In this document: positions 1 to 40,476 of the stretch, one piece after another
How positions within the stretch are numbered: position 1 is the stretch's first letter
Layout: each line of letters begins with the position of its first letter
Source: Heliocidaris erythrogramma
Taxonomy: Eukaryota; Echinodermata; Echinoidea; Camarodonta; Echinometridae
Reading direction: 5' to 3'
Assembly: GCA_025617745.1 (NCBI GenBank)
Contig: CM046853.1
Coordinates: 9,378,974 to 9,442,973, forward strand
Length of the DNA: 64,000 bases
Program-made: the position numbers and the translations under genes
Notes under the pieces: generated by a model
Seen by the model: only the letters and a program-made list of their open reading frames with translations
Databases searched by the model: none
Told to the model about the DNA's origin: nothing

Positions 1-74
1 CAGATCCCCCCTCCCAAATGGTGAGTGTAATACATGTATATTTGTAAAATCAGTACTGATTTTCTTATTTAATA

Positions 75-241
75 GATAAATCTATATACCTACCTATTCT
101 GCTAGTCTCCTGACTACGCTACCCAATCGAGAACTAACACAAAAGAGTCACAATATTGTGTGTGTAACCCATTGTTATCCCCTTCGTCACTCACCCGCAT
201 GAATACGCAACGGCCATCTTCCTCTATTGCGAGCAACCCCA
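75..241. repeat. Inverted terminal repeat of element 1, left
   Basis: Reverse-complementary to 5765-5940. Shared landmarks are gactacgctaccc, gtcacaatattgtgtg, cattgttatccccttcg and acgcaacggccatcttcctc. The arms differ by several substitutions and small gaps. Confidence 0.9.
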
Positions 242-295
242 AGTACCGGTAATAAAACATGTTGCTTGCAAGGCGAGAGGAAGGAGGGAGGGTCA

Positions 296-391
296 TAGGT
301 AGGTATATAGATTTATCTAGTAAATAAGAAAATCAGTTCTGATTTTACAAATTTACTGCAATAAATCATATATACCTACCTATTATGCTAG
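296..391. repeat. Internal complementary region of element 1
   Basis: Its reverse complement reads as the right end of the element joined to the left end, passing through the junction at about 350-352. In DIRS elements this region serves as template for completing the ends of a circular DNA intermediate. It differs from the left end at a few positions, for example in the sequence around 52-68. Confidence 0.85.
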
Positions 392-444
392 ACTAGCAGC
401 CATTCAAACCGGGTGGCATGTTTTAAGTGAAGAAGGGAACAGGA

Positions 445-1445
445 TTACAGAGAAGACACAGCCGCCTTCAAGGTGGCTGACGCAAATAATTCCTCTCCTG
501 CAGGAACATCCCTGAGGTAGCAAGAAATGAAGGAATTGGGTGAACGCCAATAGGCAGCGCTCAAAATATCATTAAGTGTCACACCTTGAAAAAGGGCCCA
601 CGAAGTGCTAACACTACGAGTGTCATGAGCATTGGGTTTACTATATGATAAGAGAGCCTCTGGGCCGGCGGACCGAATAGCTTCAACAATCCATCTAGAA
701 ATGGAATCAAGAGAAGCAGGAGAAAAGGGCTCTCGAGTGATCAGAAACAACTGATCATCTTTGCGACGTGTCTTAGTCTTATCAATATACCATTTAAGAG
801 CTCTAACAGGACACCTTGTCCTCGCGCACTGACAAGAAGTCAGATAGTGAACAAAGAAAAACTTCAACAGGGCCAGAAGAAGCCGTCTGGTTTTGGCAAT
901 GAAAGAAGCTTTAGGAATCAATCTAACACCTTTTCTCTCCCAACGAACATGACCGGGAGTAAGACAGAGGGCATGAAGGGTACTGCGCCTCTGACCACAG
1001 GCAATGGCTACCAAAAAGAGTGTCTTCAACGTAAGATGGTGAAGCGAAGCTTCACTTAACGGTTCGAAAGGAGGCTTAGCCAGGGCTTCTAGAACCCGAG
1101 GCAAACTCCAAGAAGGGACTAATTGAGAACAAGGGGGACGTTCCAGAAAGAAAGACCGAATCAATTCACTCAACAGCTGGAATTAGAAATCCCCGAGCCA
1201 TCCGGAAACCCCGAATGAATGGCACCAATTGCAGACCGGTAACCTCGGATAGTAGAGATAGACCTTCCTTTGTTAAACAGCGAGATTAGAAAATACGCAA
1301 TTGAACCAATAGGAGCCTTAGACAGGGTTTGATCCCGTGCCTTACACCACTGAGAAAAGGCTGAAAGATGGGAATTGTAAATTTCCCTCGTAGAGACTCT
1401 ACGACTGGACATTACAAAGTCTGCGGCCCTTTCAGAAAGACCTGA
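445..1445 (-). pseudogene. Tyrosine recombinase of DIRS-like element 1, one frameshift
   Basis: The product would cut and rejoin DNA to integrate the circular intermediate. The N-terminal core-binding domain is read at about 1170-1445 (STRxxY, then a WC and a STIRGYRSAI motif). The catalytic domain is read from about 1173 to 445 in a different frame, so one frameshift near 1170 separates them. In the catalytic part (242 residues) the arginine lies in GQRRSTLHAL (R62/R63), the HxxR box is HDTR (H183, R186), and the nucleophile is Y219 in FISCYLRD. All catalytic residues I can recognise are present. The segment follows RNase H on the same strand, as expected for DIRS. It ends before the internal complementary region. 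Confidence 0.85.
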
Positions 1446-2180
1446 CTGTCTCGCAGATTCTCCGATAGGGGCCAAGCAGTCAAATGAAGGGACGCTGGAC
1501 TGTGGTGAAGAATCCCCGAAAGGGGTTGCGACACCAGATCCTACCTCCAGCGGGCCCCAGCAATTGTAAATGAGGGAAAAGACCTCTGGATGGAGCTTCC
1601 ATTCTGATGGAAGACACCTGCCCCGGGATAGGAAGTCCGCAATGAGGTTTTCCTGACCGGGGAAGAGGCAAAGAGGCAACAGGCATGATCCCCATGTGAT
1701 GACACCACTTCCACAGTTGCGCTGCTAAGGCATCCAGGGTGGCAGAACTAGTGCCTCCCTGCCGACTGATATAAGCCACAACTGTGACATTATCCATAAG
1801 AATCAGAACTGAACGACTGAAAAGTTGTCTTCTGAAGTGAAGCAGAATTAAGAAAACTGCCATGAATTCCAGGACATTGATATGGGGTAGAGTCCCAAGA
1901 TAAGACCAATCCCCTGAAACCGTACTGCCGTTGCAATGTCCGCCCCACCCTAGCCGAGAGGCATCTGTCGAGACTGAGATCGACGGAAGGGGGGTACGGA
2001 AGGACTTGCCTCGCGCGAGAAACTCCGCATTCGACCAACGGGAGAGAAGGGATTTGATTTCTACTGGTACTGGAATCCAGACCAAGAGAGAATCCCTGCA
2101 CGGTTTGTAAAACCTGAGGAGATGCCTTTGAAAAGGTCTCATAAGGAGCCGACAATCCTCTAGAACATCGACCAGACTGG
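1446..2180 (-). pseudogene. RNase H domain of DIRS-like element 1, with deleted C-terminal region
   Basis: An open frame covering 1480-2454 carries a DIRS-type RNase H, of which about residues 92-320 are in the true frame. Acidic residues are visible in STDASRLGWGG (D164), HINVLEFMAV (E196) and ILMDN (D221). The frame differs from that of the upstream reverse transcriptase, so there is a frameshift at about 2180-2230. After the PGQENLIADFLSR motif (near 1620-1660) the DLFAT...YAFPP stretch seen in element 2 is missing. The reading jumps from WG...LE almost straight to the recombinase N-terminus, which I read as an internal deletion. Confidence 0.8.
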
Positions 2181-3147
2181 CTAGATATAAGATAACTGAA
2201 GCCACTGCCTGGCCCTGACCCTTCTGGCCAGAATCAGCCTGCGAGCCGCTGAGACAATAGTGAGTATTCTGTCTCGACTGGGCCGAGCCAATTGATTCTG
2301 AATATCTAACACTGCCCCCAAAAAAACTGGTCGGCGTGTCGGAATCAATTGTGACTTTCCCCAATTTATTAGGAAACCTAAGTCTTGAGTGACTCTGACG
2401 AGCATGCGTGCCTCGTCTAAAAGACGATCTTGCGACTCCGCTAAGAGGAGCCAATCATCCAGATAGCAAAACAGCCGAAGGCCGCGGCGCCTCAGCAAGG
2501 CTGCCAAGACAGCCACTACCTGCATAAACACCCGAGGGGCTGGACGCAGCCCGAAGGGAAGAGCGCGAAAGCGGAAAGTCTCTGAAAGGAAGGAAAAACC
2601 CAGAAGGTCGCGTGAAGCGCGATGAATAGGGATATTGAAATACGCATCTTTGAGATCTATCGATATCGCGTAATCCTTCCTCTTGATCAACGAGAGAATT
2701 GAGGCGAGAGTTTCCATCCGAAAATGTACCGGAGGAATGAATTAGCTTATTCTTTTCAAATTCAGTATCAAACAGAGTTTTCCCGAGCGCTTGGGAATAA
2801 CGAAAATCGGAGAAAGAGAAAGACACGGCTGGTCTTTCACCCTATCTATAGTCCTTTTGTTCAACAGAGATTTGATCTCCGTTGAAGCGTGACAACGAGC
2901 CTGGGCAGACATGGGAGGTGAACGAGATCTTATAGACCCTCCGGGGAGCGAGGTTGATAGATATACAGAAGAATTCGTCTCGCACTACGGAGAGCACGAA
3001 GGCGTCCCCGGTGATGGCCTCCCAAGCCGGAAGAAAAGAATGAATTCGGCCACCTACCATATCGGACTGAACAAGCGCTCGGGGAAGACCGTCAAAGACT
3101 AGGCTTAGCCTTGTGCGAACCAGTTGCCTTGCCCCGCAGAGAGCCAC
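2181..3147 (-). pseudogene. Reverse transcriptase of DIRS-like element 1, frameshift and stop
   Basis: DIRS-type reverse transcriptase. The N-terminal part (GGRIHSFLPAWEAITGDAFV, about 2990-3060) is in one frame. A frameshift near 2900-2930 moves the reading into the frame holding the FVIPKRSGK motif (near 2780-2800), and a single in-frame TAA at about 2742 interrupts it. From 2717 to 2181 the palm is open: DLKDAYFNIPIH (catalytic D21 of that frame), LPFGLRPAPRVF, and YLDDWLL (D87, D88), followed by GKSQLIPTRRPVFLG. All three catalytic aspartates are intact, so inactivity here comes from the frame breaks. Confidence 0.88.
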
Positions 3148-4087
3148 GACTACCTCTCAAAGAGGCCCTGCCACGTCCACCTCTCCCGCGAGGGGGGTAT
3201 GACTGAACATCAGCAGGCAAGGCCACAGAAACTCGACTGTGTTGTCCCGAAGTGGGAGCAACAGCCCTCTGTCAGGAAGGAACCCGCGTCGGCTTAAAGG
3301 GAGCGCGGAACTGCTTTGTCATCTCAGTGATCTGTTTCCACGCATCAATCTCCCTTTGAAAAACTGTAGCGAATTGTCCGCCAAAGAGCGAGGGGCCCCG
3401 AGAAGGGACATCCCGGAGAAGTGAAGAAATGTCAGTCTCCTTAACCCCGAGGGCGGAGAGGGCCAAAACCCTACGGCGGTTCGTAATCGAAGCAGCCGCA
3501 CTGGAGAGTTGTGACCACTGCAGACATGAAAGAGTATGCAGCAGGTCATCAATAACCAGCTTATCACCATCAGTGAAAGCCTTGAAATGCGGCCAAGCGC
3601 ATACCGGTTCTGACTTGGCCGCCGACATTGCCCAAACGTCTATCCTCGGCCTTAAAGGAAGAGGAAGTAAGTGGATTGGGGGAACGCACCTCCAAAATCT
3701 CCGGAGAGAGAGAGACTTAGCTTTGAAAAAGCTATCCTGATCTTGGGAATTAAAGGCAAAGGCCTTACACTTAATCAAAGCAGGGTGCTTAACAAGAAGC
3801 CCGGATTCAATGCGGTTATACTCCGCCATGAATTCCTCCGTGAGGGAAATACCCTCAGAGGAAACCTGCTGTCTGAACCAACGAGAAGTCGAACCCTGCA
3901 CGCGGGCTGACTGAAATTCAGGGAGATATTTGGTCAACAAGGCAACCGCCTCCACCCCACAAAGGGAGAGCGATTGAGGCCCTGCCTGCTCCAACAATGT
4001 CGATTCAGAAACCGAAACTTGAGAAGCAGATTCCAATTCTGGCTCCGCTTGATTTGATTGGGACAATGGTCCACGAACAATAGCCAA
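3130..4087 (-). pseudogene. Gag-like C-terminal region of DIRS-like element 1
   Basis: An open frame of 271 codons (3272-4087) matches the gag-like region of element 2 in layout, ending with a LFGGQF motif and a basic WKQITEMTKQFRAPFKP segment. It is followed at about 3130-3195 by an arginine/glycine-rich stretch (RGRGGRGRAS...) that could bind nucleic acid. There is no zinc knuckle. It lies just upstream of the reverse transcriptase on the minus strand. It is assigned as gag by position and by similarity between the two elements, not by a known motif. Confidence 0.65.
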
Positions 4088-4179
4088 ATCAGGTGGATAC
4101 TCCCATGGGCCACTATACGTCTCCTCACCCGACGGAGCCCCCGAGGGCTGCGGGTATAGGAGACGCGAGAGACCCCGTC

Positions 4180-5355
4180 TCAGACAATGAGGTAACGAGG
4201 CAAGTCGGGCCGAATAGTCTCAGTGTCAGACCCTGGAAGAGGAATAGAAGCAGGGTCTGTGGTATCTGGTGAGAGGGACCAGCCCTGCCGCTGAGCAAAA
4301 ATCCGCATCATGCTAAGTATTTCAGATTGAGAAGGATCAGACGGGGCAGCAGCGGGCAAAGCCTTGCTTCTCTTAGTCCCCTTAGATGCGACCTTCTTAG
4401 GCTTCTTTTTAACTGGCTCAACAGGAGCCGAAGCCGTGACCCGCTTCTTAATTAGGGCGTCTGACAGACTTCGGGCGGTTCTCCGAAATAACTTCGGAAA
4501 CACGAACCAAACCCCCATCGGAGGGATGCCCGCCTCCCTCCAGGGGAGAAGTGCGCTGAGGGTATGTACCCAAAGTCGCGCACACACTACCCTTACTGGC
4601 TGAGCAACAAGAAGCTACAGCCACGGGTCGGGCGCTCGAGGCGCCAAGATGCGAGGGCAGACTGGGACAAGGTCTCAGTATTCGCCCATGAACTACTAAT
4701 AGTATGTGGAATCACTGTTGTTCCACCTGTGGGAGGCAATAGGAGACCACTAGTAGTCGCGCACTCGGGTGACAACACCTGATGCTCCGTAGAGCGCCCA
4801 TAGTTGTTGGCTTGAGCCTTCCCATCAGCTGGCAAATGCGACAGCCCGGGTAGTACTCGTTCATCGGCCGGGGGCTAGGGTATGAAAACCCGTGCCCGTG
4901 AGCTGCCCCGCAGTAGTGGCACTAGTCTCCCCTAGCGGATTTATGCGAGTCGTCGCAACCGTGCGGGAAACAGACGTCCCTCCTTCTGGTCTGTATGACC
5001 GGGGGATTGGATTTATGATATCCAAACCACTAGAACTTGACGTCAACCGCCCCGAAGCCACGGGCTTCGGGGTTGACGTCCCAAGCTCAACTAACGCCAC
5101 CCGCCCCGAAGCCGCGTGCTCCGAGGCTGGCAAACTCTGCGGGGTAACACCACTGGGCAACTTAGCTGCAGCCCTCCTCCCTCCCCCATGTACGAAAGTA
5201 CTAGGGAGATTTCTGGAAGGCCGAGTCGTCTTGCTAGACGACTCTTCAGAAGAAGCAGGTCTCCGTGACCTAACTGCTTCTTCTTCCGAACTTATATTGC
5301 TGCAATAAAACAGACAATAAAAGTATACAAAAATATGAAATACTTTAGAAAGCAC
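4180..5355 (-). pseudogene. Gag-like N-terminal region of DIRS-like element 1, broken
   Basis: The first protein-coding block after the leader on the minus strand. It is read in pieces: 4861-5355, 4593-4835 and 4180-4587, separated by stops and frame changes. It is rich in Ser, Pro and Thr. The last piece has a lysine-rich patch (EPVKKKPKKVASKGTKRSK, about 4370-4430) that resembles a nuclear localisation signal. It has no recognised domain. The role as a nucleocapsid-type protein is inferred from position only. Confidence 0.5.
5039..5080. repeat. Near-perfect hairpin in the gag-like region of element 1
   Basis: The arms GACGTCAACC...CCGAAGCC and GGCTTCGGGGTTGACGTC pair with a small bulge and a loop of about 3 nt. 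Confidence 0.7.
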
Positions 5356-5593
5356 GCAATAATAAACCTAAAAATTTTGGGGAAACGCACAAAAATTCTA
5401 CAGACAAACACCGTTTAATACAAACACCGAATCTAACAGGATCGGGTCAAACAGAGACACGAGCAAGACACAGAGAAATAACTACGTGGGGCTGCCTGAA
5501 ATAACTGCCTGAAAAGGAACATAAAATATCCCTTGCAAATGGCAAAAAGTGACATAAAAACACAAGAGTACTATAATCTAGAACGAAAATAAG

Positions 5594-5695
5594 TACAGAA
5601 TAGTGCTTTTAAGGGCAGAATAGTGTTTTAAGGGCAGAATAGTGTTTTAAGGGCAGAATAGTGTTTTAAGGGCAGAATAGTGCTTTTAAGGGCGT
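5594..5695. repeat. Short tandem repeat in the leader of element 1
   Basis: About five copies of a 19-21 bp unit built on gggcagaatagtgttttaa, in the untranslated leader between the right terminal repeat and the gag-like region. Confidence 0.9.
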
Positions 5696-5764
5696 AAAAG
5701 CGCGCTGAAAAGATACAAAATGACCTGAATTCAGGAGCGCCGTGACTCGACAACCTAACTCGAC

Positions 5765-5940
5765 GGGTGCGAGCAAGAAAGAGGAAGATGGCCGTTGCGT
5801 ATTACTGCGGGTGAGTGGCGAAGGGGATAACAATGGGATTGCGGGGGGTGCGCACACAATATTGTGACTCATTTGTATTAAAGTTCTCGAACGGGTAGCG
5901 TAGTCAAGGGACTAGCATAATAGGTAGGTATATCTGATTT
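5765..5940. repeat. Inverted terminal repeat of element 1, right
   Basis: Reverse complement of 75-241, as shown by the matching gatggccgttgcgt, cgaaggggataacaatggg and cacaatattgtgactc words. This is the 5' (leader) end of the element on its coding strand. Confidence 0.9.
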
Positions 5941-6046
5941 ATTGCAGTAAATTAAGCCGATAGCGGTAAGTGCACGCACTTCGGGCCATTTGAATAGATC
6001 CAAGCTACCTAAATAAGCATTCTTGAGAACTACGTGTATAACTTAC

Positions 6047-30743: not shown

Positions 30744-31906
30744 GAGTGTTGGTTAAAAATTACTTTTAATCTTGCGTGGGTTAAAACTATTGTTGATTAA
30801 AACAGTGTTCTCGGCTTTCCCGCCAAAATGATAGTGCTAACTGTCAAGACACTTTATTTTTTTGTTGGTTAAAAGTTTGATCAAAGTTGATTAAAGTAGC
30901 AATCTCGTGACCGAACAGTGCATGCGCATATGGATTTTGAACAAATTCGCTGCGCACAAATCTGTAACAGAAATTGTTTGCGATAAAAATGGAAGGCGTT
31001 GTCATTCAAGTCGCTGCATGACTGGGGACATTCAAAGAGCTTGTCGGCGTGTTTGAAGGTGAGAAACTCTTCTTCATATTTGTGATTGTTTTCTACCTTA
31101 ATCTTGGGAAGAAATAGATCTACAATATGCTCTTTCTTTCTAAATTTAAACGGCTTGGGAGCAAGTTCAACCTGCTCGATCTGGACTAGACGTGGCTAAG
31201 CCAGGCCCACCAGTAGATCTACTGACTATGCCTACGGTAGCGAGGAAGCGACGCAGGCGCGATGGCGGTGTGTTCAACTTCGCGCATGTCCATATTTCGC
31301 GGACAGGGCAATAAGACAAAAACTGAAACTAGAACATTTTTTGAGAAAAAGATATAGCATCAATGTAGGCGTAGGCATGGTCAAGTCTAGTCCAGGTCTG
31401 AGCAGGTCGAACTTCCCGAACTGCTGAACGTAGAAAGCAAGATCACTGAGTAGATCTATTTCTTGATAAGACTAACTATAGACAACAATTACAGATATGA
31501 AAAGAGTTTCTCCGGGGAGTTTCTCACCAAATAAAACTCACCAACAAATGGTTAAACATTTAACCAACAACTTGTTTAAGTTTAATCAACACCATTTTAA
31601 CCAATGTTGAGCAAAATGTGATTAACCAACAAATGGTTAAACATTTAACCAACAAAATAAAACTAACCAACAAATGGTTAAACATTTAACCAACAATATG
31701 TTTTAGTTTATTCAACACCGATTTAACCAACGTTGAGCAAAATATGATTAACCAACAAATGATTAAAACTTTTAATCAACCACATGTTAAACTTTAATCA
31801 ACAGGCCGTTGATTAAAGTTCTAACCTACAAATGTGTGGTTCACCTGGTAATCCTCGGTTGATTAAAATTTTAACCAACAAGATTAAAAATTTTAATCAA
31901 CGTTCT
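30744..31906. mobile_element. Foldback-like repeat with TTGGTTAAAA-type ends
   Basis: The two ends carry imperfect inverted repeats (GAGTGTTGGTTAAAAATTAC at the left; a reverse-complementary TTTTAATCAACGTTC at the right) and the interior has many further GTTGGTTAA/TTAACCAAC and TTGATTAAA words, including two copies of caacaaatggttaaacattt. Its body is GC-richer and CpG-containing (31160-31310). No transposase is visible. It is probably a non-autonomous mobile element. The 1715-bp tandem duplication starts inside it, so its last 1.05 kb occurs again at 38762-39811. Confidence 0.55.
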
Positions 31907-32152
31907 AACATATAGGTTACCATTGAAAACTAATTCTTGTGAGAGAGAATTTGAATATATTTATAATGCTACCCAAGGGCCATTTTCTTCATAAGCAATA
32001 CAATAATCAATTAAATACTATGAAAAGAGAATGCTTCAATAATATTTTCAACAGTTAGGTTATGACTAAAATTAATTCTTGTGAGAGAGAATTTAAATAC
32101 ATTTACAATACAATCCATGGGCCACCTCCTTCATAAACAATACAATAATCAA
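30857..32152 (+). repeat. 1715-bp tandem duplication, copy 1, first part
   Basis: 1296 nt that match 38762-40057 in length and, on reading, in sequence with no difference noticed. The rest of copy 1 (419 nt) is at 38343-38761, beyond the inserted DIRS-like element 2. Confidence 0.95.
31928..32146 (+). repeat. About 141-bp tandem units, interrupted by element 2
   Basis: Units begin near ttcttgtgaga at 31934 and 32076, period 142. The second unit is cut by element 2 and resumes at 38343. The intact array is in the second copy at 39835-40200. Confidence 0.85.
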
Positions 32153-32191
32153 GAAAATTATAACTAATTTTGTTATTTACTAGATAAATCT

Positions 32192-32332
32192 ATGTATCTA
32201 CCTAATTGCTAGTTTCCCAAACTATGCCGTCATTCGAGAAAACCTAAGTCTAAAACGCGCAGCCCCTGCCTGCGCGCGCGTACTCCCCGTCCACCAATCC
32301 AATCGCGCCACCGCCATACTCTTCCTCTTCCG
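32192..32332. repeat. Inverted terminal repeat of element 2, left
   Basis: Exact reverse complement of 38181-38321. It contains a CG-rich core (gcgcgcgcgtactccccg) and the cttcctcttcc word. Outside this block the two ends differ. Confidence 0.95.
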
Positions 32333-32393
32333 AGCAGTCAGAGACAGAATCTAGGACATGTCAGACAAGGAGAGGGGCTGGAGGGAGGGACAT

Positions 32394-32486
32394 AGGTAGA
32401 TACATAGATTTATCTAGTAAATAACAAAATTAGTTATAATTTTCTTGATTTACAGCAATAAATCGATGTATCTACCTAATTGCTAG
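32394..32486. repeat. Internal complementary region of element 2
   Basis: The first part (32394-32451) is the reverse complement of the left end 32147-32205 and the second part (32445-32486) of the right end 38301-38342. They overlap at TTGATT (32445-32450), the complement of the junction core AATCAA. It therefore records the circle junction with one copy of the core. Confidence 0.95.
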
Positions 32487-32559
32487 AATAGCACGGATAA
32501 AAACCCGGGTGGCATGTCCCAGGACGGGAGTAACTAACGCGGGGCAGACAGAGACGACG

Positions 32560-33542
32560 AAGCAGCTCTCAACCCAGAGGTTTCAAATCCAACCTCACCC
32601 GAAGGAGCATCCTTAAGATAGAAGGATGTGAAGAAAGTAGGGGAACGCCAAAAGGCGGCCCTCAAAAGTCTTCCAAAGGGATGAACCTGACAAAGCGCCC
32701 AGGAGGTAGAACACTCCTAGTGTCATGCGCTCTGGGAGGCTTCCCAGACAGGAGAGCCTCCGAACCCGCAGCTTGGATAGCCTCGACAATCCAACGGAAG
32801 ATAGTCTCCCGTGATGCTGGGGAAGAAAGGTGATGGAAAAAGAGAAGAGCTGATCATCCTTACAAAAACAACCGTAGTCCTATCCAAGTACCATTTGAGA
32901 GCCCTAACAGGGCACCAAGATTTATCCTCCATGACGGAAGAGAATTCCGACAGAGGACTCAAGAACACTTCGATTAAGCCAGAAGAATCCGTCTGATTCT
33001 TGGCACTAACGAAGGTCGAGGGACAAGACGTACACCTTGCCTTTCCCATCTGATATGCCCGGGGGCCGTAGAGAGAGAAAGGTGTTCTTAATCGGGAGAT
33101 GGTGTAACGACGCTTTGCAGAACGGCCCAAAGGGCGGTTTGGCCAAGGCGTCCAAAACCAAGGAAGGCTCCACGCAGGAGTCAACTGGCGATATGCTGGG
33201 CGTGTCAAAAGAAAGACCTCAGCAAATGAGTCAGGAAGGGAGAGATTGAAACTCCCGAACCATCAGAAAAAAACCAAGGTGAACCGCAGTAATAGCGGAC
33301 CGGTAACCACTAAGTTAGAGAGGGCCCTGCCCTTATCGAAAGGAGTAATAAGGAAAATTGCTGTAAAAGCACCCACCGGGGCAGAAACGGGGAAAACAAA
33401 CCCCTTCTCCCCAACAAGCATGGAAGGTTTCTAAACTCGAGTTGACAACAGCTCGGGTAGAAACTCTTCTGCTCTGGACTATGAACTGGGAGGCTCTCTC
33501 TGAGAGTCCTCGCTTCCTCCCCAATAGCGGCCAGGCGGTCAA
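32560..33542 (-). pseudogene. Tyrosine recombinase of DIRS-like element 2, broken
   Basis: The N-terminal portion is recognisable at about 33400-33542 (GLSERASQF...SRRVSTR). The catalytic part is read at 32723-33208 with CPVRALKWYLD shared with element 1. The HxxR box HDTR lies at 32716-32727. A 1-nt loss just after it shifts the frame before the FWRSPTFF...FYLKD segment with the nucleophile tyrosine (codon 32618-32620). The first catalytic arginine is not in a clean frame. At least three frame breaks make it inactive as written. Confidence 0.75.
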
Positions 33543-33549
33543 TGTAGAG

Positions 33550-34014
33550 CCGCCGGACGATGGTGGAGGATCCCCGACAGGGGCTGATCTGAGGACTGCT
33601 CTCCATAGAAGGGAGAGAGGCCGACCGTCCAGCAGAGACAGAAGAAGAGGAAACCAAGGTCTCCTCGGCCAGCAAGGTGCTATGAGCAGAAACCCACGCC
33701 TGATCCTCCTGAATCTTCCCCAGGAACTGAGGAATTAAGGAGATCGGCGGAAAGGCGTAACCCCAGAAGTTCTTCCCTGAAGGGAGAACGCATCGAGGGC
33801 CCAAGCTTCCGGATCTCGCACTCGAGAGCAAACTCGGGAGGCGATGATTCAGAGCTGTCGCAAACAGGTCTATCTCCAGATGGGCGCAGACTGAACTGAA
33901 GTAGTCGAAGACCTCTTGATTCAGTGACCACTCGGAGGGGGGACACATGTCCCGGGACAGCAAATCTGCAATCAGATTGTCCCGCCCGGGAACATAGGAG
34001 GCGATCGGAATCAC
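33550..34014 (-). pseudogene. RNase H C-terminal and DLFAT/YAFPP region of element 2
   Basis: An open stretch beginning with VPGRDNLIADLLSR, then IDLFAT, LPS and WGYAFPPISLIPQFLGKI. This block lies between RNase H and the recombinase in DIRS-type elements, where a methyltransferase-like domain has been described; I do not see a DPPY-type motif and do not claim activity. It is the portion that element 1 has lost. Confidence 0.6.
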
Positions 34015-34540
34015 TCGGTGAGGCCGACACCACTCTTAAGTTTGGCGGTTAGAACGTTCAGGGTAGCGGGAAGAGTCCCGCCCTGCCTGTTGATGTAAGC
34101 AGCAACAGAGGTGCTGACCGTCAAAATCAGGACGGAGCGACCTACAAACATGTTCTCGAAAGGTGGAGAGACATGAGGACTGCCATCAATTCCAACACAA
34201 TAAGTGGGGCAAGGTGCACAGGTGTGACCAGTCCCCCGAGACCACCTGGTCCGAACAGGGCGATAAGTAGGCGTTTGATCTCCTCGGAGAGAGGAATCCA
34301 CACCTTGAGCGAGTCTACACTGGGCTTGAAAACTTCAGAAGATGAAGTTGGAAAAGGCCTCATATGAAGCCAACAGTCTTTGAGGACATCCCTATGGCTC
34401 GATAAGTGGTCCAAGAACTGGTGCCATCGGCCTGCCCGAACTCGACGTAAGAGACGAAGAGATCGAGCTAGAAAGACAATTGCGTGAATTCTCTCCCGAC
34501 TGGGGCGGGTAAGTTGGTTCACAATGTCTAATTTCCGCAC
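34015..34540 (-). pseudogene. Reverse transcriptase end and RNase H of element 2, deleted
   Basis: The open frame 34142-34540 shows the tail of the reverse transcriptase connection (RPSRERIHAIV, ...DCWLHMRPF) and then VLELMAV, the second acidic site of RNase H. The expected TDAS...GWGG strand with the first catalytic aspartate is missing, with FGPGGLGG in its place, so a deletion plus frame changes removed it. The third acidic region follows in another frame near 34090-34130 (VLILTVSTSVAAYINRQGG), where the usual MDN is not seen. Confidence 0.65.
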
Positions 34541-35430
34541 TCTAGGTAAATGGGTCTGCGGGTAGGAGTCAACTCCTACTTGTCCCAGTTGGCTATGAAT
34601 CGTACTTCTTGCGTAGCACGGAGAAGTAGGGCCATGTGCGACTGAAGGACGGACACAGAGCTCGCCACCAGGAGCCAGTGGTCCAGGTAAGTGAAAAAGT
34701 CTCAGACCGCGATCCTGAGGGAAGCGGCTAGGGTAGAGACTGCTCGAGTAACACTCGAGGAGCCGGTTTCAGGCCGAAATTTAAGGCCTCGAACCGGAAA
34801 GTTTCGCCTTGAAGGAGAAACCTAGAAGGTCCCTTGAAGAAGGGTGTATCGGTATGTGAAAGTATCTTTCAAGTCTACCGAAATAGCCACATCTGACGGT
34901 CTGATCGCCGGGAGAATCGAGGCCAAGGTTTCCCTGTGGAAAAACCTCTCTTGGTATGAAGGAATTGATGACCTCCATATTCAAGATCATTCTGAGCTTC
35001 CCCGAGCATTTGGGAATATAAGATAGGGGAGAGGCACAACTGGGGTGGTCTCTTACCCTTTCGATCGCGCCCTTTTCCAGCAGCTCTTGAATCTCGGTGG
35101 AGATGTGCTCTAGAAAGGGGGCGATAGTGTAGGAGGGTTGTGGTGGACGGTTCCGTGTGGGAGGGGCTTTGCGAAAAGTATGCAGAAGCCTCCTCGCACG
35201 AAGGGGAGCACAAAAACGTCGTCGGTAATTCCTTCCCAGGCGGGAAGGTACTGAAGACGGCCGCCAACCCTCTCCTCCAACGCTCGGGGCGCACCTGTGC
35301 ACGGGGCAGCTGGAAGCGCCACCGCGTCTAGGAGGCGGAAAGACAGCCTGGGCCTGCGGCTTAGGAGCCGAGGACTTAAGGCGTTTCAGAAGTTCCGTCG
35401 CCTGCTTGCGTGAATCAACCTCAAGTTGAA
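34541..35430 (-). pseudogene. Reverse transcriptase of DIRS-like element 2, catalytic site altered
   Basis: The N-terminal part is open (IQELLEKGAIERV, SYIPKCSGKLRMILNMEVIN), followed by a frame slip across the DLKD region and return at HIPIHPSSRDLLGFSFKAKL (about 34800-34850). The active-site box at 34675-34689 reads Y-L-D-H-W instead of Y-L-D-D-W: the codon 34678-34680 is CAC where GAC is expected. The enzyme would be inactive even without the frameshifts. The same box is intact in element 1. Confidence 0.8.
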
Positions 35431-35585
35431 TCACATCAGGCCCCTTACCTCCAAAGAGGTGAAGGCCGGAGTGCGGGACCCTGGCCAGGAGGGCAGGTAT
35501 GTCCGCATCCGCAATGCCCAGAGAGGAAAGCATAAGTTCCTCCTAGCATTGGTGGCTATTGCTGTCGACACAGACAGTTCCAACC

Positions 35586-36192
35586 ACAACGAGCCTGTCC
35601 AGGACAAGGCTTCGTCTAGCAACAGGATGTCCGAGTCGGACATCTCGAGGTGCTGACTCCTAGCGCGAAAGGAAAGGAGCGTACCCAAGTGGGCAGTCAG
35701 CCTCAGGCCAGTCCTGGAATGAGCTTCCATTAAGGACGGGAGCTTCTCTATCTGGCGTAAGGTGTACTCTTAAAGTTGACACCAAGCCTACCACCTACAT
35801 GTAGGAGGTCACTGGAACAGGACTTTCTCGTAATTTAATCGAGTGTCCTGTCGAGAGAAGGTGAAAAACCCAGCCGAGGGACGGTTTTACAACGAGCCTG
35901 TCCTTGGACAAGGGGCTTCGTCTAGCACAGGATGTCCGAGTCGGACATCTCGAGGTGCTGGCTCCTAGCGCTAAGGGAAAGGAGCGTACCCAAGTAGGCA
36001 GTCAGCCTCAGGCCAGTCCTGGAATGAACTTCCAATAAGGACGGGAACCTCTCTATTTTGGCGCAAGGTGTACTCTTAAGTGGACACCAAGCCTACCACC
36101 TACATGTAGGAGGTCACTGGAACGGGACTTTCTCGTAATATAATTCGAGAGTGTCCTGTTTAGAGAAGGTGAAAACCCCGGCCGAGGGACGG
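35586..36192. repeat. 303-bp tandem duplication inside the gag-like region of element 2
   Basis: Copies 35586-35884 and 35889-36192 share gatgtccgagtcggacatc, ggtgtactcttaa and cctaccacctacatgtagg with modest divergence. The duplication is not a clean multiple that keeps the frame open. Confidence 0.93.
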
Positions 36193-36698
36193 ACCCTACT
36201 AAGGATGCAAGAGGCTGTGAGGCGAAGTCATTGAAGACTCGCTTACAGTCCTCCGTAAGAGGGATGCCCTTGGAGGGACGCTCACCTTGAAAAAGGAGAG
36301 ACGGATGTCCCGGATCAGCCCGACTCTGTAAAAGTGTCGGGAAGAAACTTCTCCAGCAGGGCTTGAGTCTCTACCGCCAAGGACCCAAAGGCCTGGGGTG
36401 TAATCTCAGCCTGTGAAGAGGCATCATCCTCCGAAAATCCAGACTGAAACCTGATCCCAAGAAGGGCGGTGTAAGCAGTCCCAGGATTCCTCCCCAGGCG
36501 GAGCACCAAGTGCCGCTGGAATGGGAGTAGCCCCGACCGGACGATCAAAGCTGAACGTGGTCGAGAGACGCCCGAAGTGGGGCGGTAAGGCTCTAGTGTG
36601 TTGGAAAACAAACACAATGAGCCAGATACCTGAGAAAAGGAACCGGATCCCAACCCACTAGAAGCAGTGGTGGTAAACAAGGGAAAACCAGTGTTCCT

Positions 36699-36880
36699 AG
36701 CCGGATAACCGGTAAAAACCGGTATCCGAACCGGATATCCGGTAAAAACCGGTATCCGAACCGGATATCCGGCAAAACCGGTATCCGAACCGGAACCGGT
36801 ATCCGAACCGGATATCCGGTATCCGAACCGGAACCGGTATCCGAACCGGATCCGGTATCCGACCCGGACCTGGGTCGGGT
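36699..36880. repeat. Palindromic minisatellite in the gag-like region of element 2
   Basis: Units of 12-30 nt built from CCGGATATCCGG, accggtatccgaaccgg and ggtaaaaaccgg. It encodes reiterated FGYRF / VRIPVFTGYP-type peptides on the minus strand. Confidence 0.95.
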
Positions 36881-38180
36881 CGGGTACAGGTATCCCCCCT
36901 TCCCCCTTGGGGGGAGGGGTTGGAGTCAGGCGTGGTGGGGAGTACAGACACAGAGTCTGACCAACCACTCCGCTCCACAATGATCTTGAGATAATTCAAA
37001 AGTTCATGGGAGACGCCTAACTCAGAAGAAGTGGTCGCCCCTTGGGGGCTAACTTTCTTCTTCTTGGTCCCCCCTGACACATGAGGTGAACACACAGTCG
37101 GTGTCAAGGGGAGAGAGTCCGCCTCGCCTGTTGGCTGGGCAGTACTCTGGCGCTTACGCTTCTTGGGCAGGTGGGCATGTTTATCGCCCCCTTTACCCTT
37201 AGAAACGGGCACCGCCTCCGTAGTAGGCCCTGAAGGGAGTACTTTTGGAGGATCACGACTCTCTTTTTCCCTTACCCGCCTTGCTTGTTGTAGAAGCGTG
37301 CGGAGAGACAAAAGGAGCCGATCCCTGAGCAATCACACCTATGGCTAGAGAGCGAGGAATGATGCTCGAGCGAGACGAACTGTGGGCAGGGATAACACCC
37401 ACAGTTTTATCGGTGAGAGGTATTGGCCGGAGGCACTCACTCCCACCGTTATACAAGTCTCTATCTTCGAGAGAGGTATTGGCCGTGTTCCAGCACTCAC
37501 TCTCTCGGTTTTCCCCGCATGAGTTGGTCGTCAAAATAGACGGCGAACTCATAACGGGGCGAGCCGTACACGAAGTAGGCCCTAACTTACCTTAGTCGAA
37601 GCTCCGTGGAAGTTATAATGTTGGTGCGAGATTAAATTCTCGCAGCCAACCCTTCCAAGGCTGGGCGAGTCCCCTTATAAGTATTAAATACTGGGGAACG
37701 CCAGCCGAACGGAGACCTCGACATGGCTGAAATTAAAGACAAGCAACAAATATAGAAATCCATTTATAGTAATAAATTTATTATTATTACAAAACAGTAT
37801 AGATCTATATAAAGGTAACAACCAACTCACAAGACGGAGTGGGAATAAACTCCTATTACGGAGCACAACGTATGATAAGACCGCTTGTCTAAGCGCGTTG
37901 AATCAACCACCTACAGACACGGGGGCTAGCCCGACGCAGTGTACTAGTACACCGTCTGTGAATAAAGCCACGAAAGTGAGGAAAAACGGCAAAGTAATTT
38001 CATTAATTTACCGTGAAGGAGGTTGACTCAGGAAAAATCCGATACACCAAAATGAGTGTGAAAACATGGTGAACGGGATTTTTATTGCGAAAGGCAACCA
38101 AAAACGCTTTTGGAGGTAAAAATCTCGCAATTTAGGTTAAGACTTAGCTTCATAGATGTCACTTCTCTGACGGGCGAGAA

Positions 38181-38321
38181 CGGAAGAGGAAGAGTATGGC
38201 GGTGGCGCGATTGGATTGGTGGACGGGGAGTACGCGCGCGCAGGCAGGGGCTGCGCGTTTTAGACTTAGGTTTTCTCGAATGACGGCATAGTTTGGGAAA
38301 CTAGCAATTAGGTAGATACAT
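38181..38321. repeat. Inverted terminal repeat of element 2, right
   Basis: Exact reverse complement of 32192-32332. Beyond it the sequence ends in gatttattgctgtaaatcaa, which differs from the left end, as is usual for DIRS ends. Confidence 0.95.
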
Positions 38322-38342
38322 CGATTTATTGCTGTAAATCAA

Positions 38343-38761
38343 TTAATTACTTTGAAAGAGAATGCTTCAATAATCTTTTGAACATTTAGGTTATCACTAA
38401 AATTAATTCTTGTGATAGAGAATTTAAATACATTTACAATACTACCCAAGGGCCACCTCCTTCATAAACAATAAAATAATCTCTCAACCCACTTAGATAG
38501 AAACTTTTAAGTGTATTCCTCAGGCGGATGTTACCCTCACAATCTTGGAAGAACAAAATAGAGTTCTTCCTGAAACTAAAATATCTTTAATGATCAGCGT
38601 GTTACACTTATTACACTGCTGGAATATATAACACTGTCTGAGCTTATTAATTTTCAATTAACACAAGACAGCACATCGATCTTACCCAGCCAACATTAAT
38701 TCATAATAGGGATAAAGAGTCTGCAATGTTTGATTAATTCTATTATGTACACTGTGGACAG
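38343..38761 (+). repeat. 1715-bp tandem duplication, copy 1, second part
   Basis: 419 nt matching 40058-40476, resuming the host sequence after element 2. Confidence 0.95.
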
Positions 38762-40476
38762 TTTTTTTGTTGGTTAAAAGTTTGATCAAAGTTGATTAAA
38801 GTAGCAATCTCGTGACCGAACAGTGCATGCGCATATGGATTTTGAACAAATTCGCTGCGCACAAATCTGTAACAGAAATTGTTTGCGATAAAAATGGAAG
38901 GCGTTGTCATTCAAGTCGCTGCATGACTGGGGACATTCAAAGAGCTTGTCGGCGTGTTTGAAGGTGAGAAACTCTTCTTCATATTTGTGATTGTTTTCTA
39001 CCTTAATCTTGGGAAGAAATAGATCTACAATATGCTCTTTCTTTCTAAATTTAAACGGCTTGGGAGCAAGTTCAACCTGCTCGATCTGGACTAGACGTGG
39101 CTAAGCCAGGCCCACCAGTAGATCTACTGACTATGCCTACGGTAGCGAGGAAGCGACGCAGGCGCGATGGCGGTGTGTTCAACTTCGCGCATGTCCATAT
39201 TTCGCGGACAGGGCAATAAGACAAAAACTGAAACTAGAACATTTTTTGAGAAAAAGATATAGCATCAATGTAGGCGTAGGCATGGTCAAGTCTAGTCCAG
39301 GTCTGAGCAGGTCGAACTTCCCGAACTGCTGAACGTAGAAAGCAAGATCACTGAGTAGATCTATTTCTTGATAAGACTAACTATAGACAACAATTACAGA
39401 TATGAAAAGAGTTTCTCCGGGGAGTTTCTCACCAAATAAAACTCACCAACAAATGGTTAAACATTTAACCAACAACTTGTTTAAGTTTAATCAACACCAT
39501 TTTAACCAATGTTGAGCAAAATGTGATTAACCAACAAATGGTTAAACATTTAACCAACAAAATAAAACTAACCAACAAATGGTTAAACATTTAACCAACA
39601 ATATGTTTTAGTTTATTCAACACCGATTTAACCAACGTTGAGCAAAATATGATTAACCAACAAATGATTAAAACTTTTAATCAACCACATGTTAAACTTT
39701 AATCAACAGGCCGTTGATTAAAGTTCTAACCTACAAATGTGTGGTTCACCTGGTAATCCTCGGTTGATTAAAATTTTAACCAACAAGATTAAAAATTTTA
39801 ATCAACGTTCTAACATATAGGTTACCATTGAAAACTAATTCTTGTGAGAGAGAATTTGAATATATTTATAATGCTACCCAAGGGCCATTTTCTTCATAAG
39901 CAATACAATAATCAATTAAATACTATGAAAAGAGAATGCTTCAATAATATTTTCAACAGTTAGGTTATGACTAAAATTAATTCTTGTGAGAGAGAATTTA
40001 AATACATTTACAATACAATCCATGGGCCACCTCCTTCATAAACAATACAATAATCAATTAATTACTTTGAAAGAGAATGCTTCAATAATCTTTTGAACAT
40101 TTAGGTTATCACTAAAATTAATTCTTGTGATAGAGAATTTAAATACATTTACAATACTACCCAAGGGCCACCTCCTTCATAAACAATAAAATAATCTCTC
40201 AACCCACTTAGATAGAAACTTTTAAGTGTATTCCTCAGGCGGATGTTACCCTCACAATCTTGGAAGAACAAAATAGAGTTCTTCCTGAAACTAAAATATC
40301 TTTAATGATCAGCGTGTTACACTTATTACACTGCTGGAATATATAACACTGTCTGAGCTTATTAATTTTCAATTAACACAAGACAGCACATCGATCTTAC
40401 CCAGCCAACATTAATTCATAATAGGGATAAAGAGTCTGCAATGTTTGATTAATTCTATTATGTACACTGTGGACAG
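38762..40476 (+). repeat. 1715-bp tandem duplication, copy 2 (uninterrupted)
   Basis: Matches 30857-32152 plus 38343-38761, exactly 1715 nt in both. The border bases (gtggacag followed by ttttttt) show no microhomology between the unit's start and end. It contains the empty target site AATCAA at 40052-40057. Confidence 0.95.
39835..40200 (+). repeat. About 141-bp tandem repeat, 2.5 units
   Basis: Units start near cttgtgag/t at 39841, 39983 and 40124 (spacing 142 and 141). Shared words are gagaatttaaataca, cccaagggcca and gagaatgcttcaataat. The DIRS target word caataatcaattaa occurs in the first and second units. Confidence 0.88.

What the first reader, a model, noticed from the sequence alone, without database searches (positions are those of the whole stretch)
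32147..40057. Empty and filled DIRS insertion site side by side, fixing the crossover to AATCAA
Left junction: host ...ataatcaa then element gaaaatt. Right junction: element ...tgtaaatcaa then host ttaatta. The second tandem copy reads ...ataatcaattaatta with no element (40052-40057). The internal complementary region (32394-32486) is the complement of right end plus left end with a single AATCAA. So one core in the circle plus one core in the target gives one core at each junction, as expected for a tyrosine-recombinase crossover within six matching bases, with no true target-site duplication. Such a complete four-part record in one locus is rare.
Basis: partly seen in the sequence, partly recalled or inferred. 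Interest (0 to 1): 0.9.

Follow-up and report, generated by a model that had tools for sequence, protein, structure and literature searches.

The report
DIRS retrotransposon crossover point mapped
A jumping element sits in one of two otherwise identical DNA repeats, and comparing it with dozens of sister copies in the same genome shows that it joins the chromosome at one exact position rather than through a shared six-letter sequence, which hints that only one DNA strand is exchanged.

Summary
A 6190-bp DIRS1-like element interrupts the first of two adjacent, otherwise identical 1715-bp repeats; AATCAA is at both junctions, in the empty copy and once in the internal complementary region (ICR). 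The inference "crossover fixed to AATCAA" fails: the window fits seven split points equally. In core-free searches CAAG follows the left junction in 97 of 100 listed copies and AAT stands at the right in 99 of 100. Of 56 copies read at both ends (98 tried), left bases 1-3 are AAT in 29, right bases 4-6 CAA in 8, and both junctions AATCAA in 4. So the element is CAAG...TAAAT (32150-38339), joined at one position, AAT|CAA, without target duplication or obligatory core. Preferred target: A-3 A-2 T-1 | not-G+1 A+2 ... T+8. The reciprocal product expected from two-strand exchange across a 6-nt spacer was absent from 99 listed right ends. Best guess: the recombinase exchanges one strand of a cDNA whose ends abut on the ICR, as integron integrases do. 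The position is strong; the single-strand step is inferred.

The parts
32150..38339 (-). DIRS1-like retrotransposon, 6190 bp, corrected limits CAAGAA...GTAAAT; coding sense on the - strand
   Evidence: Removing exactly 32150-38339 gives the empty copy; limits within the 6-bp ambiguity set from copies elsewhere in the genome
32147..32149 (+). Host-derived AAT at the left junction (target bases -3 to -1); AAT in 29 of 56 copies read at both ends, otherwise AAA, TAT, AAC, GAT and others
32150..32155 (+). CAAGAA, element-encoded start of the left end; proposed 6-nt spacer of the recombination site
   Evidence: CAAG in 97 of 100 listed left junctions; the other two bases lay inside the search pattern; spacer role is inference
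32184..32332 (+). Left inverted terminal repeat arm, 149 nt, 99% complementary to 38181-38329
   Evidence: pair I1
32393..32486 (+). Internal complementary region, 94 nt: reverse complement of the right 39 nt plus the left 55 nt, abutting exactly at AAT|CAA
   Evidence: the joint reads AATCAA in all 56 of 60 loci in which the ICR pattern was found, which are 42 distinct elements
34784..35542 (-). Reverse-transcriptase-like open stretch; the coding region is split over several frames in this copy
   Evidence: two homologues with precomputed PF00078, 54-55% identity over 42-47% of the query; no Pfam match of its own
38181..38329 (+). Right inverted terminal repeat arm
   Evidence: pair I1
38337..38339 (+). 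AAT, element-encoded end of the right terminus
   Evidence: 99 of 100 listed right junctions; 56 of 56 in the paired set
38340..38342 (+). Host-derived CAA at the right junction (target +1 to +3); CAA in 8 of 56 paired copies
30857..32149 (+). First host repeat copy, part left of the insertion
38340..38761 (+). First host repeat copy, part right of the insertion
38762..40476 (+). Second host repeat copy, empty; insertion point equivalent to 40054|40055
   Evidence: identical over 1715 bp to copy 1 without the element

Best explanation
32150-38339 is a DIRS1-like tyrosine-recombinase retrotransposon of a family with several hundred copies in this genome. SHOWN: in nearly all copies read, host DNA joins the element at one position. 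Host bases end, the element starts CAAG, the element ends TAAAT, host bases resume, and at the sites with an uninterrupted relative nothing is gained or lost at the join. No shared core is obligatory; AATCAA at both junctions needs a target that happens to match on both sides. The target is preferred as A-3 A-2 T-1 | not-G+1 A+2 ... T+8. INFERRED: the element's two ends are held end to end on the ICR, so that GCTGTAAAT|CAAGAA|AATTATAAC forms a recombinase site with imperfect inverted arms and a 6-nt spacer. The recombinase cuts and exchanges only the strand that reads AAT|CAA. That is the window + strand, antisense to the ORFs, hence the first cDNA strand. The other strand of the site is the ICR itself, an internal part of the same molecule. 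Replication then resolves the product, as with integron attC sites. Likelihood: crossover at AAT|CAA about 0.95; single-strand exchange about 0.45.
For: Left junctions, pattern without the core: 313 matches, first 100 listed, CAAG in 97 of 100, bases 1-3 variable. Right junctions, pattern without the core: 335 matches, first 100 listed, AAT in 99 of 100, then variable; CAA in 8 of 93 distinct rows. Paired ends: 56 of 98 elements usable; right AAT 56/56, mismatch to the circle on both sides in 23 (left CAA is 56/56 there by construction, since the 3 listed rows without CAAG were left out). Where the ICR could be read (42 distinct elements) its joint is AATCAA, including 3 elements whose left junction is TATCAA or AAACAA, so the variant bases come from the target and not from variant circles. 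Three insertions in the ends of another DIRS family have an uninterrupted relative in the window; joined flanks align with no gap at the join, AAT|AGG (two) and GAC|TAG (one). Target preference: -2 A 90 of 94 and -3 A 79 of 94 distinct left rows; +2 A 65/93 (p 8e-14), +8 T 68/93 (p 5e-16), +1 G 1/93, against an assumed background of 0.32 A or T and 0.18 C or G. Reciprocal product (AAT + CAAGAA + host at the right end): 0 of 99 right rows; the one other row of that form proved to be an ICR with a small deletion. Related families in fetched loci show the same polarity in a few cases: ICR AAT|CAG with an apparent left junction GAA|CAG in L118; several right junctions AAT followed by different bases. 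In Table 3 of PMC3266345 (section read; counted by eye) 10 of 28 elements have start different from end; in 7 of the 8 with a 3-bp junction, the start is the one matching the circular junction, the polarity found here. [quoted passage not shown] paper not held).
Against: No biochemistry. The inverted symmetry of the target rests mainly on T at +8; a permutation test of the dyad was not significant (358 of 2000 permutations reached the observed value), and with it the assignment of the exchanged strand is uncertain. Published accounts picture a double-stranded circular intermediate (PMC5941688, passages), and PMC5633606 (passages) says circular intermediates were verified. The lists are the first 100 of 313 and of 335 matches, from contigs C1 to C5 only. 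The whole-genome count of the reciprocal product could not be run. The left pattern fixes spacer bases +5 and +6, so it under-samples reciprocal left ends; the right list does not have this fault. AcasDIRS1 in Table 3 goes the other way. The recombinase domain is weak: no Pfam match in this copy, and a sub-threshold PF00589 match in the window's other DIRS family.
Confidence: 0.6

Rival explanations
1. One reading: recombination within six obligatory matching bases AATCAA shared by circle and target.
For: AATCAA at both junctions, in the empty copy and once in the ICR at this locus.
Against: Only 4 of 56 copies read at both ends have AATCAA at both junctions; one target checked against a relative is GAC|TAG. 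Seven split points fit the window.
Confidence: 0.02
2. The published DIRS model: recombination between a 3-bp circular junction (here AAT) and an identical target triplet.
For: AAT is favoured at the left: 29 of 56 paired copies and 56 of 94 distinct left rows, against 4% before CAA in window background. 18 of the 28 elements in Table 3 of PMC3266345 have equal end triplets (counted by eye).
Against: 27 of 56 paired copies have another triplet at the left while the right end keeps AAT. Identity is a preference, not a requirement.
Confidence: 0.08
3. Standard two-strand exchange of a double-stranded circle across a 6-8 bp spacer, followed by strand-biased repair that always leaves the circle's spacer at the left end and the target's at the right.
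For: Canonical tyrosine-recombinase chemistry; circular intermediates are reported for DIRS-1 (PMC5633606, passages); the circle junction has imperfect inverted arms (7 of 13 positions) around 6 nt.
Against: Unbiased segregation of the spacer heteroduplex should give both products about equally; none was found in 99 listed right ends, about 93 of them distinct.
Confidence: 0.27
4. Linear cDNA with ends CAAG...TAAAT is ligated bluntly into a site-specific double-strand break, without recombinase strand exchange.
For: Single-point junctions, no gain or loss at the join; linear cDNA is the subject of a cited 2020 title.
Against: Clean ends in 97 of 100 left and 99 of 100 right junctions, and a target preference reaching from -3 to +8, argue for a recombinase; end joining usually trims ends (general knowledge).
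Confidence: 0.1
5. The side-by-side empty copy is not a tandem duplication but the other haplotype of a heterozygous insertion, placed in tandem by the assembler.
For: The copies are identical over 1715 bp, directly adjacent, and differ only by the insert.
Against: Haplotypes often carry some differences over 1.7 kb (general knowledge); the window holds no N. It would not change the crossover analysis.
Confidence: 0.35

Closest known systems
DIRS1-like retrotransposons (DIRS order)
   Same: Inverted terminal repeats, ICR complementary to both ends, longer terminus at the 3' end in coding sense, RT-like coding, no target-site duplication, some insertions inside other DIRS copies
   Different: The accepted statement is recombination at an identical 3-bp junction; here the junction is a single position and the triplet is only preferred
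Integron integrase acting on folded attC
   Same: One-sided product resolved as if a single strand were exchanged; a site made by fold-back of one strand would allow only one productive strand exchange
   Different: Bacterial, not a retrotransposon; single-strand use is demonstrated there and only inferred here
Cryptons
   Same: Tyrosine recombinase, integration of an end-joined molecule
   Different: Cryptons are reported with 4- or 6-bp terminal direct repeats as recombination substrates (PMC3212892, passages); here a 6-bp repeat occurs in only 4 of 56 copies

Membership tests
DIRS1-like retrotransposon | Inverted terminal repeats | tested here: met
   149-nt arms 32184-32332 / 38181-38329, 99% complementary
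DIRS1-like retrotransposon | ICR complementary to both ends, near the 3' end in coding sense | tested here: met
   32393-32486; the RT-like open stretch is on the - strand
DIRS1-like retrotransposon | Terminal extension at one end | tested here: met
   By length: the left terminus runs 34 nt beyond the ungapped ITR arm (32150-32183), the right only 10 nt (38330-38339). A gapped match carries the complementarity further at 95%, so the limit between divergent ITR and extension is not exact
DIRS1-like retrotransposon | Reverse transcriptase / RNase H | tested here: inconclusive
   No Pfam match in this broken copy; homologues with PF00078. The related family at 41-5952 has RVT_1 E 1.6e-19; RNase H only E 0.29
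DIRS1-like retrotransposon | Tyrosine recombinase | tested here: inconclusive
   No Pfam match here; related family PF00589 E 0.0095, below cut-off; the two elements are 68% identical over 709 aligned nt that cover much of that region
DIRS1-like retrotransposon | Methyltransferase domain | not tested
   No targeted search made
DIRS1-like retrotransposon | No target-site duplication | tested here: met
Published 3-bp core integration model (a mechanism claim, not a membership feature; Table 3 of PMC3266345 itself lists members with unequal end triplets) | Identical triplet at both junctions | tested here: not met
   Left triplet AAT in 29 of 56, right in 56 of 56
Crypton | 4- or 6-bp direct repeat at both termini | tested here: not met
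   AATCAA at both junctions in 4 of 56
PAT / Ngaro | Split direct repeats instead of inverted repeats | tested here: not met
   Inverted repeats with an ICR; the direct repeats found are internal or in the host
Integron-like single-strand recombination | Only one strand exchanged | tested here: inconclusive
   One-sided products in genome copies; no strand-specific assay possible

The most novel reading that the evidence does not exclude
DIRS retrotransposons integrate single-stranded cDNA. The ICR folds back on the two cDNA ends to build a recombinase site whose second strand belongs to the same molecule, so only the AAT|CAA strand can be exchanged productively and replication finishes the job. 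This would be a eukaryotic counterpart of integron attC recombination. It would give the ICR a direct role in recombination, and the '3-bp core' would be a target preference rather than a required homology.
Probability: 0.4. Interest if true: 0.85.

Novelty: new member of a known kind. Interest (0 to 1): 0.58.

Why it matters
How DIRS elements integrate is described in print as proposed but not experimentally demonstrated (PMC5941688, passages). A family with several hundred copies lets the exchange point be read from junctions alone: one position, no required core, a target motif from -3 to +8, and a one-sided product. That corrects the 3-bp-core description for this family and turns an old question (double-stranded circle or single strand?) into a direct test. 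Seven searches of the held paper library listed no title or abstract start proposing single-strand exchange for DIRS (rows listed of papers found: 25 of 100; 20 of 26; 15 of 36; 12 of 12; 10 of 28; 96, 8 of 11, on integrons; 10 of 10). The most relevant 2020 paper is not held, so novelty is uncertain.

Tried and rejected
Rejected: a six-base core, because 52 of 56 copies read at both ends lack it at one or both junctions. Rejected as evidence: the first whole-genome search, whose query contained AATCAA and so favoured copies with it. My early reading that CAA is a 3-bp core (from left junctions alone, note) was dropped when the right junctions varied there. A dyad permutation test was not significant. 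Pfam scans of this copy's broken ORFs found nothing useful. Not finished: whole-genome counts of the reciprocal product, and junction lists for the window's second DIRS family, because the genome machine did not answer. 39 of 98 elements had no right end within 450 bp of the expected place and were not pursued; 3 were set aside, one for two right ends and two for an altered end. Three of the 100 listed left rows were left out of the pairing because CAAG was missing; by eye one lies in an ITR/ICR fusion and the other two look like small indels.
Full report
Check of the observation. The window holds two adjacent copies of a 1715-bp host repeat, 30857-38761 and 38762-40476. They are identical except that the first carries a 6190-bp insert. 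AATCAA stands at 32147-32152, 38337-38342 and 40052-40057. The ICR at 32393-32486 is the reverse complement of right end plus left end with one AATCAA. However, joining the flanks gives the empty copy at seven split points, from three bases left to three bases right of 32149|38340. By itself the locus shows only that the exchange lies somewhere in six bases.

Sister copies. The window is at C1:9378974-9442973 of a 1.06-Gb assembly with 26 contigs. A 27-base end motif without the core has 1128 exact matches; a full copy has two, one at the end and one in the ICR, so there are several hundred copies. To avoid bias I used patterns that leave out the core. The left pattern had 313 matches. In the first 100 listed, CAAG follows in 97, while the three bases before it vary (AAT in 57, AAA in 19, and others). 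The right pattern had 335 matches. In the first 100 listed, AAT is present in 99 and what follows varies; CAA follows in 8 of 93 distinct rows. Both lists stop on contig C5.

Pairing the ends. From the 97 listed left ends with CAAG plus one I took 901 bases around the expected right end. The first 20 were chosen for having a left core other than AATCAA; the remaining 78 complete the list, so the set as a whole is not selected for bases 1-3. A right end was read in 59, of which 56 were usable, the window copy among them. Right bases 1-3 are AAT in 56 of 56; left 1-3 are AAT in 29; right 4-6 are CAA in 8; both junctions are AATCAA in 4; both sides differ from the circle in 23. Left bases 4-6 are CAA in 56 of 56, but here by construction; the unfiltered figure is the 97 of 100 above. 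The reading that fits is that the element is CAAG...TAAAT and the exchange point is AAT|CAA. The ICR joint read AATCAA in all 42 distinct elements (56 of 60 loci) in which it could be read. They include three with a variant left junction (TATCAA in L009, AAACAA in L031 and in L049), so the variable bases come from the target and not from variant circles. The ICR was not read in the other paired elements.

Paralogous empty sites. Three insertions lie in the ends of the other DIRS family seen at window 41-5952. Their joined flanks align with that family's right end with no gap at the join: targets AAT|AGG twice and GAC|TAG once. The relative is diverged and there are small gaps elsewhere, the nearest a 3-nt gap some seven bases from the join in one of the three. 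GAC|TAG agrees with AAT|CAA at two of six positions. So no base is gained or lost at the join and no core is needed.

Target preference. Among 94 distinct left rows, A is at -3 in 79, A at -2 in 90, T at -1 in 62 and A at -1 in 26. Among 93 distinct right rows, +1 is G once, +2 is A in 65 (p 8e-14) and +8 is T in 68 (p 5e-16), against an assumed background of 0.32 for A or T and 0.18 for C or G. The informative stretch runs from -3 to about +9, so it extends to the right of the exchange point; the best symmetry centre is between +3 and +4. A permutation test of that symmetry was not significant (358 of 2000), so the symmetry is suggestive only. In the element the corresponding stretch is GCTGTAAAT-CAAGAA-AATTATAAC; 7 of 13 positions of the two arms match as inverted repeats. 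Arms around a 6-8 bp segment are the usual plan of tyrosine-recombinase sites (PMC3212892, passages).

Mechanism. If both strands were exchanged at the two edges of a 6-nt spacer, the spacer would be mismatched in both junctions. Replication would then leave two kinds of copy: circle spacer at the left with target spacer at the right, or the reverse. Only the first kind is seen. One right row of 100 reads AATCAAGAA (C3:35554257); I fetched the place and it is an ICR with a small deletion, near a left end on the opposite strand. That leaves none of the reverse kind in 99. With the spacer to the right of the exchange point, the exchanged strand is the window + strand, which is antisense to the ORFs and hence the first cDNA strand. 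On that strand the two ends abut exactly on the ICR, with the joint at the exchange point. The ICR is then the other strand of the recombination site but belongs to the same molecule, so exchanging it would break the element internally. Integron integrases recombine single- with double-stranded partners and need replicative resolution (abstract start of PMC4792948 in the listing). I propose the same logic here. Steps shown: exchange position, no obligatory core, one-sided products in the copies listed. Steps inferred: the recombinase is the agent, the strand identity, single-strand exchange, replicative resolution.

Comparison with print. PMC3266345 (Background passages and section 10) describes recombination between a 3-bp circular junction and an identical genomic triplet. 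In its Table 3, 10 of 28 elements have unequal start and end triplets (counted by eye). In 7 of the 8 with a 3-bp junction the start matches that junction and the end does not; AcasDIRS1 is the exception; two have 2-bp junctions. That is the polarity found here (in coding sense the start is the element's own triplet and the end is the target's). PMC5941688 (passages) says insertion mechanisms are proposed but not demonstrated. A 2020 paper on linear single-stranded cDNA intermediates is known from these calls only by its title in a reference list; it is not held.

Verdict. The element is an ordinary DIRS1-like retrotransposon by structure, although domain evidence for this broken copy is thin. 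The useful result is the exact exchange position and the one-sided products, which make the mechanism testable.

Noticed in passing
window 41-5952: A second, related DIRS-like element with its own ICR near 297-391, coding on the - strand (RVT_1 E 1.6e-19, weak Phage_integrase match). Its ends fit the same rule...GCAGTAAAT at the right, TTTGTAAAATC at the left.
   Followed up: partly
G000 C1:42858675-46101251: 51 of the 94 C1 matches to the left-end motif lie in about 3.2 Mb of a 78.6-Mb contig; C3:35.5-37.9 Mb also looks dense. Possibly pericentromeric, as reported for DIRS-1 in Dictyostelium (PMC5633606, passage).
   Followed up: no
L086, L091, L063; G000 C1:43554473, C2:70059128: Insertions into the termini of other DIRS copies, two at the same AAT|AGG site of another family; two further rows with one and the same flank look like an insertion into the element's own right end.
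   Followed up: partly
window 35586-35884 and 35889-36192: A direct repeat of about 305 bp, 91% identical, inside the element.
   Followed up: no
window 31882-32150, 38355-38481, 39787-40196: The insertion lies in host repeats with units of about 142 bp; several units contain AATCAATTAA.
   Followed up: no
window 36700-36870: Short GC-rich repeat of GGTATCCGAACCGG type within the element.
   Followed up: no
G000 C2:14582707 and 14600376; C4:19246572 and 19351670; C4:40772613 and 40775686; C1:43554443 and C2:70059158: Pairs of copies with identical host flanks in the bases listed, suggesting segmental duplication after insertion.
   Followed up: no
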